Part shown: positions 8,369-35,809 of the stretch, piece by piece
Numbering within the stretch: the stretch's first letter is position 1
Layout of the letters: the number at the start of each line of letters is the position of its first letter
Assembly: GCA_018263395.1 (NCBI GenBank)
Contig: JAANXF010000021.1
Span: forward strand, 1-45,263
Source: Methanonatronarchaeales archaeon
GTDB lineage: Archaea > Halobacteriota > Methanonatronarchaeia > JAANXF01
Direction of reading: 5' to 3'
Length of the DNA stretch: 45,263 nt
The notes under the pieces: model-generated
Told to the model about the DNA's origin: nothing
What the model saw: the letters and a program-made list of their open reading frames with translations, nothing else
Database searches by the model: none
Translations under genes and position numbers: made by a program

Positions 8369-9838
8369 TTACCCCATCTCCTCCTGTATTCCGGAGAACT
8401 GCTCCACGGCGGACTCCAGGTTCTCCACGATGTCCCTGGCCAGGACCTCGGGCTCCGGCAGGTTCTCGGTATCCTCCAGGCTGTCGTCCCTGATCCATGT
8501 GATGTCGAGGTTGAGCTTGTCACGCTCCACCAGCTCGGCGTGGTCGAAGGACCTGAAGCGCTCCGTCTCCTCCCGGTCGTGCCGGTTCTCCGGGTTGTAG
8601 CACTCGATGAAGTCCTCCAGGTCGCCGTACGTTAGGGGGTTCCGCTTCCGGGTGAAGTGCGTGTTCGTCCGGAGGTCGTAGATCCAGAGCTCCTCGGTCC
8701 AGGGCTCCTCCCGGGCCGGCCTCCTGTCGAAGAACAGGACGTTCGCCTTGACGCCCTGCGCGTAGAAGATGCCGGTGGGGAGACGGAGAAGGGTGTGGAC
8801 GTCGAACTGGTCCAGCAGCCGCTTCCTCACGGTCTCGCCGGACCCGCCCTCGAACAGCACGTTGTCCGGCACGACGATGGCGGCGCTCCCGTCGACCTTC
8901 AGGACCGAAGAGACGTGCTGCAGGAAGTTGAGCTGCTTGTTGGACGTGGTGGTCCAGAAGTCGTCACGCTCGTAGGTCAGGGTCTGCTTCTTCGCCTCGC
9001 CCTCGCTCGTCATGACGGTGTAGCTGGACTTCTTCCCGAACGGCGGGTTGGTGAGCACCATGTCGAAGTAATCCCCTGGGTGGGAGATGAGGGCGTCCTC
9101 GACGTGCATCGGGCTCTCCTCTCCCCCGATGCCGTGGAGGTACATGTTCATGACGCAGAGCCGGGCGGCGTTGTCCACGATCTCCCAGCCCTCGAAGGCG
9201 TCGTGCTTCAGGTGTTTCTTCTGGTCCCGGTCCAGGTCGTAGCTGTCGGAGACGTAGTCGTGCGCGGCGAGGAAGAAGCCGCCCGTGCCGCAGGCCGGGT
9301 CACAGATGGTGGTGTCCGGCTCCGGAGCGACGGCCTCCACCATTGCCTCGATGAGGGGACGCGGCGTGAAGTACTGGCCGGCGCCGCTCTTGGTGTCCTC
9401 CGCGTTCTTCTGCAGCAGGCCCTCGTAAATCTCGCCCTTGACGTCGATGTCCATCCCGGTCCAGACCTCCTCGTCGATCATGTCGACGAGCTGATGTAGC
9501 CGCGCCGGGTTCTGTATCCTGTTCTGCGCCTTGCCGAAGATTACGCCGAGCAGCCCCTCCTCCGTCCCGAGCTCCTGCAGGGTCTCCTGGTACTGCATCT
9601 CCAGGTCCTGACCCCGGCGGTCGTTTCCCTCCCCGTCCTTCTTCAACCGGTCCCATCCGTACCGCTCGGGAATCAGGGACTCCGTCCCCAGGTACTCCTC
9701 CTGCTCCTCTGCCATTTTCAGGAAAAGGAGGTATGTGAGCTGCTCGACGTAGTCACCGTAGCTGACGCCGTCGTCGCGCAGCACGTCGCAGTAGCTCCAA
9801 AGCTTCTGAACGACCTGGGGGGCATCCTTGGTGCTCAT
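8369..9838 (-). CDS. hsdM: Type I restriction-modification methyltransferase subunit HsdM
   Basis: A 489-residue N6-adenine DNA methyltransferase subunit that modifies the target chosen by HsdS. It has the N-terminal helical domain (LWSYCDVLRDDGVSYGDYVEQLTYLLFLKM), QYFTPRPLIEAM, the SAM motif DPACGTGGF (residues 180-188) and the catalytic NPPF (264-267). ATG 9838 was chosen because TATA-like ACTTAAGAC lies 28 nt upstream. Its partners hsdR and hsdS are on the same strand 6 kb away with unrelated genes between. The toxin-antitoxin pair tumA/tumE is directly upstream but has its own promoter. Confidence 0.95.
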   Translation of the reverse strand: MSTKDAPQVVQKLWSYCDVLRDDGVSYGDYVEQLTYLLFLKMAEEQEEYLGTESLIPERYGWDRLKKDGEGNDRRGQDLEMQYQETLQELGTEEGLLGVIFGKAQNRIQNPARLHQLVDMIDEEVWTGMDIDVKGEIYEGLLQKNAEDTKSGAGQYFTPRPLIEAMVEAVAPEPDTTICDPACGTGGFFLAAHDYVSDSYDLDRDQKKHLKHDAFEGWEIVDNAARLCVMNMYLHGIGGEESPMHVEDALISHPGDYFDMVLTNPPFGKKSSYTVMTSEGEAKKQTLTYERDDFWTTTSNKQLNFLQHVSSVLKVDGSAAIVVPDNVLFEGGSGETVRKRLLDQFDVHTLLRLPTGIFYAQGVKANVLFFDRRPAREEPWTEELWIYDLRTNTHFTRKRNPLTYGDLEDFIECYNPENRHDREETERFRSFDHAELVERDKLNLDITWIRDDSLEDTENLPEPEVLARDIVENLESAVEQFSGIQEEMG

Positions 9839-9950
9839 TGGATGGGTCTCCGATAAAGCGAGTCTTAAGTCACTCCGGGGCCCCATGAAAAAACCGCCTG
9901 ATGGAGACCGGGGCCTTCGTTAGGTCCCCACCTTGCGTTTAACGAGCTTG

Positions 9951-10256
9951 TTAGGACAGGAAGCTCCTCGCGAACCGTCGCCAGTTTTCCTTGAGGTAAT
10001 CGACGGCGGTCCAGATGTCTCCGTCGAACTCTTCAACTGCTTCGTCCCGCCGGTACAGACGATGGATGTGGATCCGAAAGCCTCCGTGATGGTCCGCGCT
10101 GTCGATGCGGACGACCTCCTCTCCCCGACCCTGCTCGGTGTCGAAGAAGAGCGATACCGAGAACTCCTCCACGTCGTTGAACGAGGGTCGGGCCTCTACG
10201 TGCAGGTTGACCCGGCGCCCCCGGAAGCTGCCGAGTTCCTCGCCGTATCCTGTCAA
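9951..10256 (-). CDS. tumE: TumE-family toxin (DUF6516-like)
   Basis: A 101-residue protein that resembles the TumE toxin family, small proteins encoded next to HVO_A0114-type DNA-binding antitoxins. Recognisable features are VVRIDSADHHGGFRIHIHR, the His-rich centre of the family, and the C-terminal AVDYLKENWRRFAR. It starts with TTG immediately after the TAA of the antitoxin gene (10257-10259), so the two are translationally coupled. The mode of toxicity cannot be derived from the sequence. Family membership is from pattern recognition, not a search. Confidence 0.68.
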   Translation of the reverse strand: MTGYGEELGSFRGRRVNLHVEARPSFNDVEEFSVSLFFDTEQGRGEEVVRIDSADHHGGFRIHIHRLYRRDEAVEEFDGDIWTAVDYLKENWRRFARSFLS

Positions 10257-10586
10257 TTACACCACGGGCTTGACGAAGATATGGCTGTACCGGAGGACCG
10301 GACGCCGCCTATTTCCCTCTTCCCGGAGCTCCACGATGCCTTGACCCACCAGCACGTCCAGATCGCGGTGAACGGCGGCCACGTCCCGGTCCACCACCTC
10401 GGCCAGTCCGGATATCGACCCGGGCTCCTCCTCCCGCAGGACCTCGATGAGCTCCAGCCGCCTCTCTGTCAGGACCCTCCTCGCGCTCTCCGCCCCGATG
10501 AGGTAGAAGTCGGAGTACCCCGCGTCGGCCAGCGCCTTCGCAAACCGCGTGCCGGGAGACAGCTCTCGGCCCTCCACAGCAGCCAT
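10257..10586 (-). CDS. tumA: HVO_A0114-type winged-helix antitoxin (TumA-like)
   Basis: A 109-residue DNA-binding protein. The helix-turn-helix is in RRLELIEVLREEEPGSISGLAEVVDRDVAAVHRDLDVLV (a MarR/ArsR-like wHTH), and the tail RPVLRYSHIFVKPVV is typical of the HVO_A0114 family. ATG 10586 was chosen over an upstream in-frame ATG (10658) because a TATA box (TATTTTGTA, centre 10616) lies 30 nt upstream. Likely roles are neutralising the downstream TumE-like protein and repressing the locus. A divergent paralogue starts at 10667. Confidence 0.78.
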   Translation of the reverse strand: MAAVEGRELSPGTRFAKALADAGYSDFYLIGAESARRVLTERRLELIEVLREEEPGSISGLAEVVDRDVAAVHRDLDVLVGQGIVELREEGNRRRPVLRYSHIFVKPVV

Positions 10587-10637
10587 TGTATCTTGTTGTT
10601 TGATGTCAAAGTACAAAATAGTTTCGGGACTGAATTC

Positions 10638-10656
10638 GTTTAGGTCAGACCTAAAC
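10638..10656. promoter_or_regulatory. Perfect 19-bp palindrome between two paralogous regulators
   Basis: GTTTAGGTC and GACCTAAAC are perfect inverted repeats around a single A. The palindrome covers the position where the TATA box of the rightward gene (ATG 10667) should be and lies 22 nt upstream of the tumA TATA box. Such a site could let either of the divergent HVO_A0114-type proteins repress both promoters. Confidence 0.7.
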
Positions 10657-10666
10657 ATGTTTGGTG

Positions 10667-11017
10667 ATGGGGGTCGAGGAATTCGACGGGGTGAGCGATC
10701 TGCTGAAGCTGTCTAGGGCACTCGCCGACGAGGGGTACGAGGACGTGCTGTTCGTCGACCTCGAGGACGCGGGGAGAATCCTCACCGAGAAACGCCTGGA
10801 ACTCATCCGTGCAGTCGCTGAGGGCGACGTCGAGTCCATACGGGGCCTCGCCAGGCAGCTCGACCGGAAGGAGAACGTTGTCCATGAGGACCTCACCCTC
10901 CTCTTCGAGGAGGGCGTCATCGACTTCGAGGAGGAGAAGAACCGGAAGATCCCGGTCCTCAGGCACGAGAACATCTGGATCAAACCCGTCTCCCTTAAGA
11001 GGAAGGCGACGGTCTGA
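10667..11017 (+). CDS. Second HVO_A0114-type winged-helix regulator
   Basis: A 116-residue paralogue of the divergent antitoxin. RILTEKRLELIRAVAEGDVESIRGLARQLDRKENVVHEDL is the wHTH region, and RKIPVLRHENIWIKPV matches the HVO_A0114 C-terminal signature. No TumE-like gene follows it, so it is either an orphan antitoxin or a regulator of its neighbours. ATG 10667 was preferred to TTG 10661. The 19-bp palindrome overlaps its expected TATA position, pointing to self-repression. Confidence 0.78.
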   Translation: MGVEEFDGVSDLLKLSRALADEGYEDVLFVDLEDAGRILTEKRLELIRAVAEGDVESIRGLARQLDRKENVVHEDLTLLFEEGVIDFEEEKNRKIPVLRHENIWIKPVSLKRKATV

Positions 11018-14808: not shown

Positions 14809-15156
14809 TCACTTCTGCCTCCTGAAGAGCCCGACCAACGCCTCCAAAGCCTTGGACAGTGAACCCAAAAGGTCGACGCGATCCCTCCTCCGCTTCTCCT
14901 GATACCTCGTCTTGCAGGCTGAAAGGGTCGAGAGCAACTCGCTCTCCAAGCCGTTCACCCGTAGCTCGAAATCCCTGCTATCAACCCCGCCCGGCCTCAA
15001 TGATCTCACTGTGTACTCGTCGATCCTGAACTCGCTTTCGAGGCGGTCGCACTCGGAAGGGGAAAGGGAGGTGCCCTTTAAATCTTGGATTATGCTTTTC
15101 CAAACTTTCTGGAGATGACTCCAGTCTTCTATTTTCAACTCTTTGTCTAAACTCAT
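14809..15156 (-). CDS. Hypothetical protein downstream of the RM genes, 115 aa
   Basis: A mostly helical, charged protein (KIEDWSHLQKVWKSIIQDLKG; LESELLSTLSACKTRYQEKRRRD) without known motifs. It lies behind hsdR-hsdS and the caspase-like gene on the same strand. A TATA-like GATTAATCATC about 26 nt before the ATG suggests its own promoter. The coiled, basic C-terminal half could bind a partner or nucleic acid, but nothing specific can be claimed. Confidence 0.5.
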   Translation of the reverse strand: MSLDKELKIEDWSHLQKVWKSIIQDLKGTSLSPSECDRLESEFRIDEYTVRSLRPGGVDSRDFELRVNGLESELLSTLSACKTRYQEKRRRDRVDLLGSLSKALEALVGLFRRQK

Positions 15157-15212: not shown

Positions 15213-16003
15213 CTAATCGATATGAAGATACCGATTATTGATGTGCATTGCGATAATTACTAAATAGACTGGGGCTAAAAGTAATGATAACAGTATTAGA
15301 ACACTATCCATCCCACTAAATCTCTCGATAAAGTCATTTAGCGACTCGAAAAACCTCTTTATGCGTCCATCATCTAAATTTAAAATCAAGAAATGCAGAC
15401 TATTAAGGAGAGGTATACGGTATCCTTCAGAAATAAAAGATTTTTCTTTGTTTATAGTGAGAACTTCTACTAGTGACTCGCCATCACCCTGGTTGCAGTG
15501 AAGTTGCTGAATAAATTCCTTTTTTGGTGAGTCCCTGAAGGAAGAGTATTCGATGTTGATGCCCTCTGGGAGTTTAAAGCCCGACCGACTGCCATGGCCT
15601 ATCAGAAATAGTCCATAGATGTTTTCATCATAGATTACGTTCTCGAATCTCTCAACATCTTCTGACCTATAATATCGCTCAATATCGTATTTAATATCTT
15701 TTTCCGCAAATAGTCAGTCAATAAGACTACACCAGAACCATAGTTAAGAAAAGACGTTCTTAGTTTTTCAAATAGGAAATAAGGATTAAGGATTTTAAGT
15801 GAAAAAAGGGCTCTAAGTGAGAACAACCTACCAGGAAATGAAAGCATAATCATAACTCTTCCATCCTTAACCTCTTCTTTCGAACCCCGCTGTACGTGGA
15901 CGTAATTTAGGGCTGACCAGATGATGACAGGGGAGACCCACAAAAACGCGAGAAGGATAAGTGTCCTTAGTTTTCCCAAGATCGTGATCAGTAAGAGATC
16001 CAT
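15213..16003 (-). pseudogene. Putative membrane-anchored caspase-like (clan CD) protein, frameshift in A5
   Basis: Two minus-strand frames join if the T5 run at 15699-15703 (A5 on the coding strand) is given one more base: DYLRKK then continues DIKYDIERYYRSEDVERF. The restored protein has 263 residues. It has a hydrophobic N-terminal segment (about 5-35), a Rossmann-like order of strands (VVLLTD, then IYGLFLIGHGS with His137-Gly) and QQLHCNQG with Cys170, and a C-terminal membrane helix (about 234-254). A hydrophobic strand ending in HG and a Cys 33 residues later resemble the caspase/CHAT dyad. It starts 7 nt after hsdS, so it is in the hsdRS operon. Peptidase function is an inference; the break may be a sequencing error. 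Confidence 0.55.
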
Positions 16004-16010
16004 CTAAAGG

Positions 16011-17444
16011 CTAACCACTAAACTGATCCAACCCGGCTTGCTCCTCTCCCCGGCCCTTCTCCTCAAGTCCCACCAGCAACTCCCCCGCCGACCCGTCCCC
16101 CGGCTCCTGCGGCACAAGCCGACCCTCGAAAGCCTTCTTCAGGATGGCCTGGCGCAGGCGCGAGGCGCGTTTGAGTTCAGACGATATCACACTCTGCGAG
16201 TTATCAACCACTGACAACTTTCCATCAAGAAGCTCAACGATTTTATTTTGCTCTTGAGAAGGAGGAACAGGAATCGCTAAAGACGCCAACTTGGTCGCGT
16301 TAACATTCGGCTGACCAACCCCAATCTTTCCTTCGGTTATCTGCCTCCAATAGAAAAGCGACTGGAAGAATTGGTACACGTACTCCTCATGGATTCTATC
16401 AAGGAGTACTAGCCGTATCAAGTACGATGCGAAAACCGATTCAGGGAACTTTCCCTGAAGAAGGAAGTTTTTCCCGACCGTCCCTCCAGTCCTAGCAAAA
16501 ACAATATCTCCAGAGTTCAGAAGGTACTTTTTCTTCTCGTTATCCTCTATCTCGCAGTAAGGTGCTTCCTCCCAATCTACTGAGTTATTTTGAATATCCG
16601 ATATCCTCAGAAACTTAGGCCCCACTTCATTATCTTCAGCACTCGCCGTGTATCCGTACTGAATCTGCTTGGCAACATCTCCGATTTGAGCCCAGGTCCA
16701 ACAATCAGGTATGTCGAAAAGGATGTCCTCCTCAATTTCGTTTAATCGATTTCCGCTCTTGTACTTGTTGATTTCAGGATGGTTTTCAGCCCATTCTAAT
16801 AATTCGGAAGCTGACTCAAGCTCCCCCTCATACTCCTCCCGCCACTCCTGCGTCAACCGTCCCTCCACTGCGGTCTTCAGGAGGGACTGGCGGTACCGTT
16901 CGAGCTGCTTCTGCGCGGTTTCGAGGCTCTTCACGCCGGCGTCGAGGCGGGAGACCAGCTCCTCGATTTTCTCCACGATGCGGCGCTGCTCGGGGAGAGG
17001 TGGGAGACCGATATCAAAATCACTAATCGTATCGTAGGAAACTCTGGGGTGTTGTACCCCGGTGGTGTTTTTATCCGCGTATTCAACAAAACCTGATGAG
17101 AGCATCCTATACTTTAAGAATCTATTATTGATACCCTCTACGTCTCCCTTAAATACTAGGATATCAGTTGAGCAGACGCCCTCAAAATCAGGTATGGCGA
17201 CTTTGTTAAGGTAAGGTCGGAGTTTACCATATAGGAGGTCGCCTGACGAAAAACGGGTTTTAGCACTTTTCACATCATCGGATGTGCCTTTACCGATAAT
17301 GTTCCCTTCTTCTTTTTGGATATGCTTGAGCCCTAAATATGGGACAGGATCTTCCAACTCTTCAGGGTCAATCTTGGTCTTTCTTTGTTCGAGAACATCT
17401 CCTAGCTCAATCTGCGACCAGTTTTGTGGCATTTCACCACTCAA
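16011..17444 (-). CDS. hsdS: Type I restriction-modification specificity subunit HsdS
   Basis: A 477-residue DNA-recognition subunit with two target recognition domains, each followed by a conserved helix. The first half ends LPPLPEQRRIVEKIEELVSRLDAG with ETAQKQLERYRQSLLKTAVEGRL, and the second ends VPPSQEQNKIVELLDGKL with RLRQAILKKAFEGRLVPQ. The recognition domains have markedly lower GC than the conserved helices, as expected for exchangeable modules. The start overlaps the hsdR stop by 4 nt. The target sequence cannot be predicted here. Confidence 0.95.
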   Translation of the reverse strand: MSGEMPQNWSQIELGDVLEQRKTKIDPEELEDPVPYLGLKHIQKEEGNIIGKGTSDDVKSAKTRFSSGDLLYGKLRPYLNKVAIPDFEGVCSTDILVFKGDVEGINNRFLKYRMLSSGFVEYADKNTTGVQHPRVSYDTISDFDIGLPPLPEQRRIVEKIEELVSRLDAGVKSLETAQKQLERYRQSLLKTAVEGRLTQEWREEYEGELESASELLEWAENHPEINKYKSGNRLNEIEEDILFDIPDCWTWAQIGDVAKQIQYGYTASAEDNEVGPKFLRISDIQNNSVDWEEAPYCEIEDNEKKKYLLNSGDIVFARTGGTVGKNFLLQGKFPESVFASYLIRLVLLDRIHEEYVYQFFQSLFYWRQITEGKIGVGQPNVNATKLASLAIPVPPSQEQNKIVELLDGKLSVVDNSQSVISSELKRASRLRQAILKKAFEGRLVPQEPGDGSAGELLVGLEEKGRGEEQAGLDQFSG

Positions 17445-20119
17445 GCCACCAGCTCCTCATTTAACTCATCCACGACGTTTTCGAGGTCGTTTCCGAAGAG
17501 GTTGCGGGCTTTGACGAGGCCTCCTTTTTCGTTGAAGGGGGAGAGCTGGAAGTCGTCGAGTTCCATGGTGAGGCTGGTGGCTATGTGGTCCTTCATCATG
17601 TTTAGAAATTCCCGTTGCTCCCCGGTGAACTCGCGCCCGTTCTCCCCCTCCTGGCGTTCCATCCAGTCCCGGAAGCGCTGGTCCACATCGTCCCTGAAGT
17701 GGTGGAGTTCGTCGGTCTCGCCGAGCTCGTAGCGCAGGATGGAGACGAGGTCGGTTAGCAGGACGCGGTGGGAGGCGCCGCGCTCCCTGGAGTCCTGGAG
17801 CCTCTCGTAGGCGTCCCAGAGTTCGTCGGGGTGGATGGTGTAGGGCGGACTCTCTATCGCCTCCGCGAGCTCCCTTATCTGGTCCAGGGTGAGGTGGCGG
17901 TCGCCGTAGGGCCGGCTGTAGAATATCTGGAGCGCCGTGATCTCGTCCCGGTTCTCCTCGATGAACTCCCGGAAGCCCTGCACCACGCGCTCCGCCCGTT
18001 CGCCGTACTCGAAGCCGCGCTCCCGAACCTCGTCGATGGATTCCTCGTCGATATACTGGTAGGTCTTGCTCTTCACCTCCTCCCGGGCCTCCTCCACCTG
18101 CTCCTCCGTCGGCTCCTCCGTGTCGAACCTCTGCCGCGCGACCTCTTCCTGAACGTCGGGGTCCGCGGCGTCCAGCAGGTCGTTCGTGATGTCCCGGACG
18201 TCCTCCCCGGTCTTCTCCCGCAGCTCCTCGCGCTGCGCCGGGTCCATGGTCTTGTCGAAGCGGGAGAGGCGGCTGGCCAGAGTGGACAGGGTGTCGTCGT
18301 CCCGTATCCCCACGGAGACGTCCTTCACCACCCTCTCGAAGGATACGGAGGGCTCCCGGTTGAGCTGCCGGGAGTCCGTCTTCTCCGTCTCCGTGACGCC
18401 GACGGCGTCCACCACCACGAAGTGTGTCTTTCGAGCGGCGTCCGGCGTGACGCCCCGGAGCTCGTTGGGGTCGACGGTGCGGGTGCCGCGACCCTTCATC
18501 TGCTCGAAGTAGGTGCGGGACGCGATGTTTCGCATGAATAGGAGGCACTCCACCGGCTTGATGTCCGTGCCGGTGGAAATCATGTCGACCGCGACCGCGA
18601 CCCGCGGGTTGTAGGAGTTGCGGAACTCGCTGATGAGGTCCTCCGGGTCCTTCTCAGAGCGGTACGTGATTTTCTTGCAGAAGTCGTTCCCCTTGCCGAA
18701 CTCCTCCCGAACGATTCGCGTGATGTCCTCGGCGTGGGAGTCGTCCTTGGCGAACACGATGGTCTTCGGGACCTCCGCCCGGCCCGGGAACATCTCCGTC
18801 GTCACGGCGTCCCGGAATGCCCTGACCACGGTCCGTATCTGGTCCGGCGCCACGACGTAGCGGTCCAGCTGCGTCGAGGAGTAGTCTAGGTCCTCGTCCA
18901 GGGTCTCCCAGAGCTCCTCACGGGTCCGCTTGTCCCGCTTCCCGATGTACTGCTCCGCTTCCACCTCGCCTCCCTCCTCCGATATCTCGGTCACGATGCG
19001 GTAGACGTCGTAGTCCACGTTCACGTTGTCCGCGACGGCGCGCTCGTGGGAGTACTCCATCACCAGGTTCTTGTCGAAGAAGCCGAGGGTCCGCTTGGCC
19101 GGGGTAGCGGTGAGTCCGACGAGGAAGGCGTCGAAGTACTCCAGGACCTGCCGCCACTTTCCGTAGATGGAGCGGTGGCACTCGTCGATGACTATGAAGT
19201 CGAAGGTCTCGACGGGGACCTCCGGGTTGTACACGACCTCGGCGGGTTCGCCGTCCGAGGCGTGCTCGAAACCGGACTCCTCGTCCACCTCCGGGTCCAG
19301 GTCCTCGTCCTTCAGGATGGAGTAGAGGCGCTGAACCGTGGAGATGCAGACGTCGCTGGAGTCGTCCAGGGCGTTCGTCGTGAGGTGCTGGACGTTGTAG
19401 AGCTCCGTGAACTTCCGGTTGGAGTCCGGGGTCCTGTACTGCTCGAACTCCTTCTTCGCCTGTCTGCCGAGGTTGTTTCGGTCCACGAGGAACAGGACCC
19501 TGTTGGCCTTCGCGTGCTTCAAGAGGCGGTAGGTCTCGGTGACGGCGGTGTAGGTCTTTCCGCTGCCGGTGGCCATCTGGACCAGGGCCCGGGGCCGGTT
19601 CTCGGCGAACGAGCGCTCCAGGTTCGTGATGGCCTCGTACTGGGCGTCCCAGAGGCGTCCCTGCCCCAGCCCCGGCATGTTCCTCAGCCTGCCGCGGAGC
19701 GTCTCCAACTGGTCCGTCCGTTCCTCAAGGGTCTCGGGTCGGTGGAAGCTGAACACCCTTCTCTGCCTCGGCTCCGGGTCGGCGGCGTCGGTGAACATCG
19801 TCTCGACGCCGGTGGACTCGTACCTGAAGCGGAGAGGCAGCTCGACGTGAGGTATCTCCTCCGGTATGCCCGCCGCGTATCGCCGGGTCTGCTCCGCCAC
19901 GCCGCTCAGAGTCGTTTCCTCCGGCTTAGCCTCCACCACCCCGACGGCCTGCCTGTCGACGAAGAGGGCGTAGTCGACGGGACCCGAGCCCGTTGGAAAC
20001 TCCCGGACCGCGACGCCCGGCGAGGCGCCGAGGTTGATTCGGTCCCGGTCCTGAACCGTCCAGCCCGAGGACTCAAGCTGCCGGTCGATTTTTTCGCGGG
20101 CCCTGGACTCGGGGTTCAT
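17441..20119 (-). CDS. hsdR: Type I restriction endonuclease subunit HsdR
   Basis: An 892-residue motor and nuclease subunit. The N-terminal nuclease domain has the PD-ExK-like pattern PVDYALF then VVEAK (D49, E63, K65). The SF2 helicase core has Walker A TGSGKT (184-189), the box IDECH (311-315), TATP, and the late motif FEQMKGRGTR. A helical C-terminal region for HsdM/HsdS binding follows. A TATA box ATTAATTATA (20141-20150) is 27 nt upstream of ATG 20119, so it heads the operon hsdR-hsdS-caspase-like gene. hsdM is encoded separately at 8.4-9.8 kb. Confidence 0.95.
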   Translation of the reverse strand: MNPESRAREKIDRQLESSGWTVQDRDRINLGASPGVAVREFPTGSGPVDYALFVDRQAVGVVEAKPEETTLSGVAEQTRRYAAGIPEEIPHVELPLRFRYESTGVETMFTDAADPEPRQRRVFSFHRPETLEERTDQLETLRGRLRNMPGLGQGRLWDAQYEAITNLERSFAENRPRALVQMATGSGKTYTAVTETYRLLKHAKANRVLFLVDRNNLGRQAKKEFEQYRTPDSNRKFTELYNVQHLTTNALDDSSDVCISTVQRLYSILKDEDLDPEVDEESGFEHASDGEPAEVVYNPEVPVETFDFIVIDECHRSIYGKWRQVLEYFDAFLVGLTATPAKRTLGFFDKNLVMEYSHERAVADNVNVDYDVYRIVTEISEEGGEVEAEQYIGKRDKRTREELWETLDEDLDYSSTQLDRYVVAPDQIRTVVRAFRDAVTTEMFPGRAEVPKTIVFAKDDSHAEDITRIVREEFGKGNDFCKKITYRSEKDPEDLISEFRNSYNPRVAVAVDMISTGTDIKPVECLLFMRNIASRTYFEQMKGRGTRTVDPNELRGVTPDAARKTHFVVVDAVGVTETEKTDSRQLNREPSVSFERVVKDVSVGIRDDDTLSTLASRLSRFDKTMDPAQREELREKTGEDVRDITNDLLDAADPDVQEEVARQRFDTEEPTEEQVEEAREEVKSKTYQYIDEESIDEVRERGFEYGERAERVVQGFREFIEENRDEITALQIFYSRPYGDRHLTLDQIRELAEAIESPPYTIHPDELWDAYERLQDSRERGASHRVLLTDLVSILRYELGETDELHHFRDDVDQRFRDWMERQEGENGREFTGEQREFLNMMKDHIATSLTMELDDFQLSPFNEKGGLVKARNLFGNDLENVVDELNEELVA

Positions 20120-35693: not shown

Positions 35694-35809
35694 GGACTGG
35701 TAGCCTAGCGGACGATGGCCCCGGCCTTCTAAACCGAGGGGCGCTGTTAAGCCCGAGGGTGAGGAATGAAGAAAGCCGGTGATCGCGGGTTCAAATCCCG
35801 CCCAGTCCG
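35694..35809 (+). tRNA. tRNA-Arg (anticodon TCT) with a 42-nt intron
   Basis: Acceptor GGACTGG (35694-35700) pairs with CCAGTCC (35802-35808), discriminator G 35809; the T arm GCGGG-TTCAAAT-CCCGC is intact. The anticodon stem CCGGC/GCCGG encloses the loop C-T-TCT-A-A once an intron at 35732-35773 is removed, the canonical 37/38 position. A bulge-helix-bulge core is visible: exon CTTC (35726-35729) pairs with intron GAAG (35768-35771), flanked by the 3-nt bulges TAA and AAA. Mature length is 74 nt. Confidence 0.93.

What the first reader, a model, noticed from the sequence alone, without database searches (positions are those of the whole stretch)
15213..16003. Membrane-anchored caspase-like protein encoded in the hsdRS operon
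After repair of one homopolymer base, a 263-residue protein appears with membrane segments at both ends and a soluble core. Its order (strand VVLLTD, helix, strand, strand IYGLFLIGHGS, then QQLHCN) resembles the His-Gly/Cys dyad of clan CD peptidases. It starts 7 nt behind hsdS. Linking a protease-like membrane effector to type I restriction would fit an abortive-infection layer, in which the effector acts if restriction fails. I know of no described type I system with this part.
Basis: partly seen in the sequence, partly recalled or inferred. Interest (0 to 1): 0.75.

Follow-up and report, generated by a model that had tools for sequence, protein, structure and literature searches.

The report
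New archaeal membrane caspase-like protein family
Behind the DNA-recognition gene of a restriction system in this archaeal genome sits a frame-broken gene for a small membrane-bound protein with a caspase-type fold and active site; it belongs to a scattered, apparently undescribed archaeal family that may work as a cell-death or defence protease, although only a few of its relatives lie next to restriction genes.

Summary
The gene is real but frameshifted. Its C-terminal half (frame of 15216-15713, minus strand) matches a profile built without it at E=6e-31 (98-104 bits). Read-through raises the score to 115 bits. I found over 30 homologues, patchily spread: 21 of 394 genomes of the window's archaeal phylum, a few in DPANN archaea, one in a Bacteroidota bin. 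No Pfam, NCBIfam or PADLOC model describes them. GHG and the Cys of QxHCN are present in 33/33. AlphaFold2 models of two intact homologues (pLDDT 91 and 88) show the caspase/haemoglobinase core: His at the end of strand 3, Cys just after strand 4. Foldseek's highest-probability hits are clan CD peptidases (GPI transamidase, caspases, legumain, SAVED-CHAT), with weak E-values. Most members carry N-terminal membrane helices. The type I link is a minority trait: one other homologue overlaps hsdS by ATGA, one more lies near hsdR/hsdS, two near type IIG enzymes, one beside a TIR protein; most sit beside housekeeping genes. Best reading: a new membrane-anchored clan CD cysteine peptidase family, probably a conflict effector, here inserted behind hsdS (38% GC against 63%). 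A PrrC-like coupling to restriction is possible but unproven, and this copy may be dead.

The parts
15635..16003 (-). 5' part of the gene: N-terminal membrane segment, strand 1 region and helix 1, ending at the frameshift
   Evidence: open frame from ATG 16003; alone scores only 1-5 bits against the family, gains meaning on read-through
15905..15970 (-). N-terminal hydrophobic segment (about residues 12-33)
   Evidence: hydropathy; same place as the TM helices of most homologues
15216..15713 (-). 3' part of the gene in the other frame: catalytic half of the clan-CD-like domain plus C-terminal extension
   Evidence: profile without window: E=2.4e-29 and 6.1e-31
15591..15599 (-). GHG motif: putative catalytic His (residue 137 of the read-through protein)
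   Evidence: invariant in 33/33 homologues; end of strand 3 in both models
15492..15506 (-). QLHCN motif: putative catalytic Cys (residue 170)
   Evidence: Cys 33/33, HCN 32/33; Cys directly after strand 4 in both models
15246..15302 (-). C-terminal hydrophobic segment, particular to this member
   Evidence: hydropathy
16011..17444 (-). hsdS, type I specificity subunit, 7 nt upstream of the gene
   Evidence: Pfam PF01420 E=6e-29; PADLOC Specificity_I E=5e-98
17441..20119 (-). hsdR, type I restriction subunit, overlapping hsdS by 4 nt
   Evidence: Pfam EcoEI_R_C, ResIII; REase_I
8369..9886 (-). hsdM, type I methyltransferase, about 6 kb downstream of hsdRS and separated by unrelated accessory genes
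   Evidence: Pfam N6_Mtase E=6e-68, HsdM_N E=5e-14
14809..15156 (-). 115-aa protein of unknown function, 57 nt downstream on the same strand; possible last gene of the operon
   Evidence: open frame; no Pfam, NCBIfam or PADLOC hit; not recurrent near homologues

Best explanation
The gene belongs to an undescribed, patchily distributed, mainly archaeal family of membrane-anchored His/Cys peptidases with a minimal caspase/haemoglobinase fold (clan CD). One to four N-terminal membrane helices tether a domain of about 140 residues; the His of GHG and the Cys of QxHCN form the catalytic dyad. I infer that it is a conditionally active effector: an unknown trigger (viral infection, or loss of a neighbour's function) activates it, it cleaves a membrane-near target, and the cell dies, stalls or blocks the virus. 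In this genome an AT-rich copy was inserted directly behind hsdS and would be co-expressed with hsdR-hsdS; the copy as assembled is frameshifted. Shown by computation: family, predicted fold, dyad conservation, membrane segments, patchy spread, gene order. Inferred: proteolysis, trigger, target, cell-death or defence role, any functional tie to restriction.
For: Homologue profile hits the window at E about 1e-30. GHG and Cys invariant in 33 sequences, some under 25% identical to each other. AlphaFold2 mean pLDDT 90.7 and 88.3 with beta1-alpha1-beta2-alpha2-beta3(His)-hairpin-alpha3-beta4(Cys) order, which is the published minimal caspase/haemoglobinase fold with the dyad at the ends of strands 3 and 4 (PMC4357240). 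Foldseek: every hit with probability 0.96 or more for the TM-less model is clan CD (PIGK, caspase-3, legumains, SAVED-CHAT), 24 of the top 50; the anchored model gives the same families. The profile reaches a nanoarchaeal Peptidase_C13 protein at E=2.5e-4. N-terminal membrane segments in most members. Patchy: 21/394, within one genus 4/25. GC 38% against 63% for the contig. Restriction or TIR genes near six members.
Against: No Foldseek E-value passes 0.001 and TM-scores are 0.5-0.6. No sequence match to any named peptidase family for any member. The residue before the Cys is His, where clan CD usually has a small residue (own knowledge). Defence neighbours are a minority (about 6 of 28 loci), and the control regions also held a few defence hits, so enrichment of defence genes as a whole is not proven. 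The window copy is frameshifted. The window protein itself was not folded; two homologues were.
Confidence: 0.6

Rival explanations
1. PrrC-like guard of the type I enzyme: the protease is held silent by, or docked on, the HsdRS complex and is released when a virus blocks restriction, killing the cell.
For: Directly behind hsdS here (7 nt) and in G337/L077 (ATGA overlap, hsdM-HTH-hsdS-gene-...-hsdR); the two copies lie in distant parts of the tree, so the arrangement arose at least twice; a third member lies near hsdR/hsdS (L076). PrrC/EcoprrI precedent (PMC2610378).
Against: Most members, including close relatives of the window copy such as L063 and L079, have no type I genes nearby; seven of 26 genomes with a member have no hsdS at all at E 1e-5. 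Apart from the discovery case, one direct adjacency against 0.017 expected. Copy is frameshifted.
Confidence: 0.15
2. The place behind hsdS is only a landing site: an accessory gene with its own function was inserted into a variable island, and the link to restriction has no functional meaning.
For: Members sit in many unrelated contexts (ribosomal, nrdD, hydrogenase, integrase, TIR, type I, type IIG); AT-rich gene in a GC-rich contig; hsdM and hsdRS are themselves split by other accessory genes.
Against: Two independent direct hsdS adjacencies in the same direction are more than chance predicts even with ascertainment in mind; restriction-modification genes and integrases are the only recurrent accessory neighbours.
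Confidence: 0.5
3. A membrane-bound processing enzyme (legumain/GPI-transamidase-like protease or transamidase) with a physiological, not a defence, role.
For: Best single Foldseek hit of the core is the GPI transamidase subunit PIGK, itself a membrane-anchored C13 enzyme (E=1.4e-3); several members next to housekeeping genes.
Against: Patchy presence even between species of one genus, multiple copies in some genomes, no conserved neighbour or substrate gene.
Confidence: 0.2
4. In this genome the gene is a dead remnant: the frameshift is real and no product is made.
For: Shift present only here; homologues uninterrupted; family segments upstream of the shift are weakly conserved in this copy.
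Against: Motif half is fully conserved and open; draft MAG, single base, homopolymer-rich stretch, so an assembly error is equally likely.
Confidence: 0.4

Closest known systems
Clan CD cysteine peptidases: C13 legumain / GPI transamidase PIGK, C14 caspases and metacaspases (PMC4357240)
   Same: predicted beta1-4/alpha1-3 core, His-Gly at end of strand 3, hairpin after it, Cys at end of strand 4; PIGK is also membrane-anchored
   Different: no sequence match to C13, C14, C11, C25, C80 or CHAT models; ends soon after strand 4 (no clear p10-like strands 5 and 6); His before the Cys (HCN) in place of a small residue
SAVED-CHAT effector of type III CRISPR / CBASS (PDB 8tl0; described in PMC11229360)
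   Same: clan CD protease as antiviral effector; best Foldseek family of the anchored model (probability 0.98-0.99)
   Different: SAVED sensor domain and no membrane anchor there; no sensor domain, CRISPR or cyclase gene linked here
Prokaryotic metacaspases/orthocaspases with TM helices (PMC3501461)
   Same: about 15% of bacterial metacaspases carry TM helices; rare in archaea (5 of 114 genomes), dyad conserved
   Different: not detected by the C14 profile; different motif and much smaller domain
PrrC anticodon nuclease with EcoprrI (PMC2610378)
   Same: extra effector gene inside an hsd operon
   Different: nuclease with ABC-ATPase domain, not a membrane protease; coupling to restriction tested there, only suggested by gene order here

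Membership tests
Clan CD (caspase/haemoglobinase fold) | catalytic His at the C-terminal end of strand 3, followed by Gly | tested here: met
   GHG 33/33; strand 3 = 110-117 with H118 (L063) and 71-78 with H79 (L025)
Clan CD (caspase/haemoglobinase fold) | catalytic Cys at the C-terminal end of strand 4 | tested here: met
   Cys 33/33; strand 4 = 145-150 with C151, and 106-111 with C112
Clan CD (caspase/haemoglobinase fold) | four strands with alpha1-alpha3 and small beta section between strand 3 and alpha3 | tested here: met
   element order in both models; alpha3 very short
Clan CD (caspase/haemoglobinase fold) | sheet order 2-1-3-4 and overall structural similarity | tested here: inconclusive
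   sheet order is not printed by the tool; Foldseek probabilities 0.96-1.00 to clan CD only, but E 1.4e-3 at best and TM 0.5-0.6
Clan CD (caspase/haemoglobinase fold) | peptidase activity through the His/Cys dyad | not testable with these tools
   needs an assay
Peptidase families C14, C13, C11, C25, C80, CHAT | match to the family's profile | tested here: not met
   no member of 33 matches any of them in Pfam at E 0.1, nor a peptidase model in NCBIfam at E 0.01
Known anti-phage systems (PADLOC) | match to a defence protein model | tested here: not met
   only stray single-member hits at E 2e-4 to 0.04
PrrC-like guard of type I restriction | effector gene inside an hsd operon | tested here: met
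   window and L077
PrrC-like guard of type I restriction | effector held silent by the restriction enzyme and released by an anti-restriction factor | not testable with these tools
   needs genetics
PrrC-like guard of type I restriction | regular genetic linkage of the family to hsd genes | tested here: not met
   3 of about 29 members within 5 kb of an hsdS

The most novel reading that the evidence does not exclude
A previously undescribed family of membrane-anchored archaeal caspase-like proteases that act as death effectors, some of them coupled to type I restriction enzymes, so that blocking restriction releases a protease at the membrane.
Probability: 0.15. Interest if true: 0.85.

Novelty: new variant of a known kind. 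Interest (0 to 1): 0.55.

Why it matters
Caspase-type proteases are rarely reported in archaea, and none of the family libraries I could search holds this group. A minimal, membrane-tethered clan CD domain with a strict GHG...QxHCN signature, scattered across methanogens, Methanophagales, haloarchaeal relatives and DPANN, gives a defined set of intact genes for testing whether archaea use caspase-like proteases in antiviral cell death, and whether some are guards of restriction enzymes as PrrC is in E. coli.

Tried and rejected
Direct searches of the read-through protein in Pfam, PADLOC, NCBIfam and PDB sequences gave nothing. The profile against PDB sequences gave nothing. Hits above E 0.01 in the first relatives search were unrelated proteins, e.g. 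a succinyl-CoA synthetase-like protein and a MutS-like protein. No homologue in IMG/VR, phage or plasmid records (one representative each), so a viral or plasmid origin is not supported. A dedicated partner gene was sought by all-against-all comparison of neighbours: none recurs except restriction-modification genes, an integrase and housekeeping genes. Defence enrichment against random regions of the same genomes: 235 against 17 PADLOC models hit, but the model libraries are redundant and the controls also had hits, so I do not claim significance. Programmed frameshifting was considered; no homologue has a shift, so it is unlikely.

Full report
The window is one contig (G000:C14) of an archaeal draft genome of 1.17 Mb in 22 contigs, 78% complete. 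On the minus strand it carries hsdR (20119-17441), hsdS (17444-16011) and, 7 nt later, the gene in question (16003-15213). hsdM is not in this operon but about 6 kb further on, at 9886-8369. Between them lie a possible fourth gene of the operon (115 aa, no match) and accessory genes of the kind found in variable islands, including a PIN-like protein and winged-helix proteins.

The gene is broken in the sequence as given. Its first frame runs from ATG 16003 to a stop at 15635; the second, one base off, is open from 15713 to 15216 and holds the motifs GHG and QLHCN. This is not chance. A profile built only from homologues picks out the second frame among all 887 six-frame ORFs of the window with E=2.4e-29, and the next best ORF has E=0.3. 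Reading across the shift raises the score from 103.6 to 115.1 bits, because the segment NYGSGVVLLTDYF before the shift matches the family's helix 1. The segments further upstream (strand 1 and membrane anchor) are too variable to score. The gene has 38% GC in a contig of 63%, which points to recent acquisition. Whether the shift is an assembly error or a real lesion cannot be told without reads; no homologue has one.

The family. Three homologues among 100 relatives seeded an alignment; scans of 84,980 species genomes and of whole genomes then gave more than 30 members: 21 of 394 sampled genomes of the window's phylum (methanogens, Methanophagales, haloarchaeal relatives), a few DPANN archaea and one Bacteroidota bin. 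Presence is patchy even inside a genus (4 of 25 species), and some genomes have two or three copies. GHG and the Cys of QxHCN are present in 33 of 33 sequences, HCN in 32; a Lys before strand 4, the Gln three residues before the Cys and a Leu are invariant too. Most members have one to four hydrophobic helices before the domain; two near-identical members (L022, L025) are soluble, and the window copy alone has a further hydrophobic segment at the C-terminus.

Fold. AlphaFold2 with the 33-sequence alignment gave mean pLDDT 90.7 for L063 (196 aa with two membrane helices) and 88.3 for L025 (155 aa). Both show strand 1, helix 1, strand 2, helix 2, strand 3 ending at GHG, a beta hairpin, a short helix 3 and strand 4 with the Cys right after it. 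This is the minimal caspase/haemoglobinase fold as published, including the small beta section after strand 3 and the dyad at the ends of strands 3 and 4 (PMC4357240). Foldseek puts clan CD enzymes on top by probability: PIGK 1.00, caspase-3 0.99, legumains 0.97-0.99, SAVED-CHAT up to 0.99; all hits at 0.96 or more for the soluble model are clan CD, and the anchored model agrees. E-values are weak (best 1.4e-3) and TM-scores are 0.5-0.6, so this is a remote relation. A nanoarchaeal Peptidase_C13-thioredoxin protein is reached by the profile at E=2.5e-4, a weak link by sequence.

Neighbours. L077 (G337) has hsdM, a winged-helix gene, hsdS, then a member starting inside the hsdS stop (ATGA), and hsdR further on. 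L076 lies between a HEC-01 pair and hsdR with an hsdS fragment. L022 and L025 lie near type IIG enzymes, L022 also beside a TIR protein, and L069 near a ThsB-like TIR protein. The remaining loci have ribosomal, hydrogenase, nrdD, peptidase U32, fmt or integrase genes. With 31 hsdS genes in 53 Mb of 26 genomes, 0.17 members are expected within 5 kb of hsdS and 3 are seen; 0.017 directly behind hsdS and 2 are seen. The window was chosen for this trait; without it the p-values are about 0.013 and 0.017. The two direct adjacencies lie in distant branches of the tree. So the link to type I restriction is above chance but a minority trait, and no gene is a regular partner.

Mechanism. Shown by computation: family, predicted fold, dyad conservation, membrane segments, patchy spread, gene order. 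Inferred: that it is a protease; that it is conditionally active; that activation harms the cell or blocks a virus. The patchy spread, several copies per genome, membrane tether and recurrent restriction or TIR neighbours fit a conflict effector better than a housekeeping enzyme, but they do not prove it. A PrrC-type coupling to the restriction enzyme is an attractive special case for the hsdS-linked copies (precedent PMC2610378), at about 15%.

Novelty. TM-bearing prokaryotic metacaspases are known (PMC3501461), and clan CD effectors in prokaryotic immunity are known (SAVED-CHAT, PMC11229360). This family is detected by none of the Pfam, NCBIfam or PADLOC models; it is best called a new family, hence a new variant of a known kind. 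My literature searches found no description of it, but they cover only open-access papers.

Noticed in passing
window 8369-9886 and 16011-20119: hsdM is split from hsdR-hsdS by about 6 kb of accessory genes, an unusual layout for a type I system.
   Followed up: partly
window 9951-11017: Two homologous small winged-helix ORFs lie on opposite strands (10257-10658 minus, 10661-11017 plus), the first followed by a 101-aa ORF; looks like a toxin-antitoxin-type arrangement.
   Followed up: no
window 35694-35809: Rfam finds a 116-nt tRNA match that ARAGORN misses: probably a tRNA gene with an intron.
   Followed up: no
L085 859-2418: Nanoarchaeal protein with a Peptidase_C13-like domain joined to a thioredoxin domain.
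   Followed up: partly
L077 4767-15708: Type I operon with a winged-helix gene between hsdM and hsdS, and the caspase-like gene, an unknown 330-aa protein, a 176-aa protein and an ATPase between hsdS and hsdR.
   Followed up: partly
L031 8693-9247 and L035 6949-7389: A small unknown protein family lies next to the caspase-like gene in two nanoarchaeal genomes (about 51% identical); possible partner in that branch.
   Followed up: no
L075 (G257) 8370-9119: One member has QFNCC in place of QxHCN: the Cys is kept, the His before it is not, so that His is not strictly needed.
   Followed up: no
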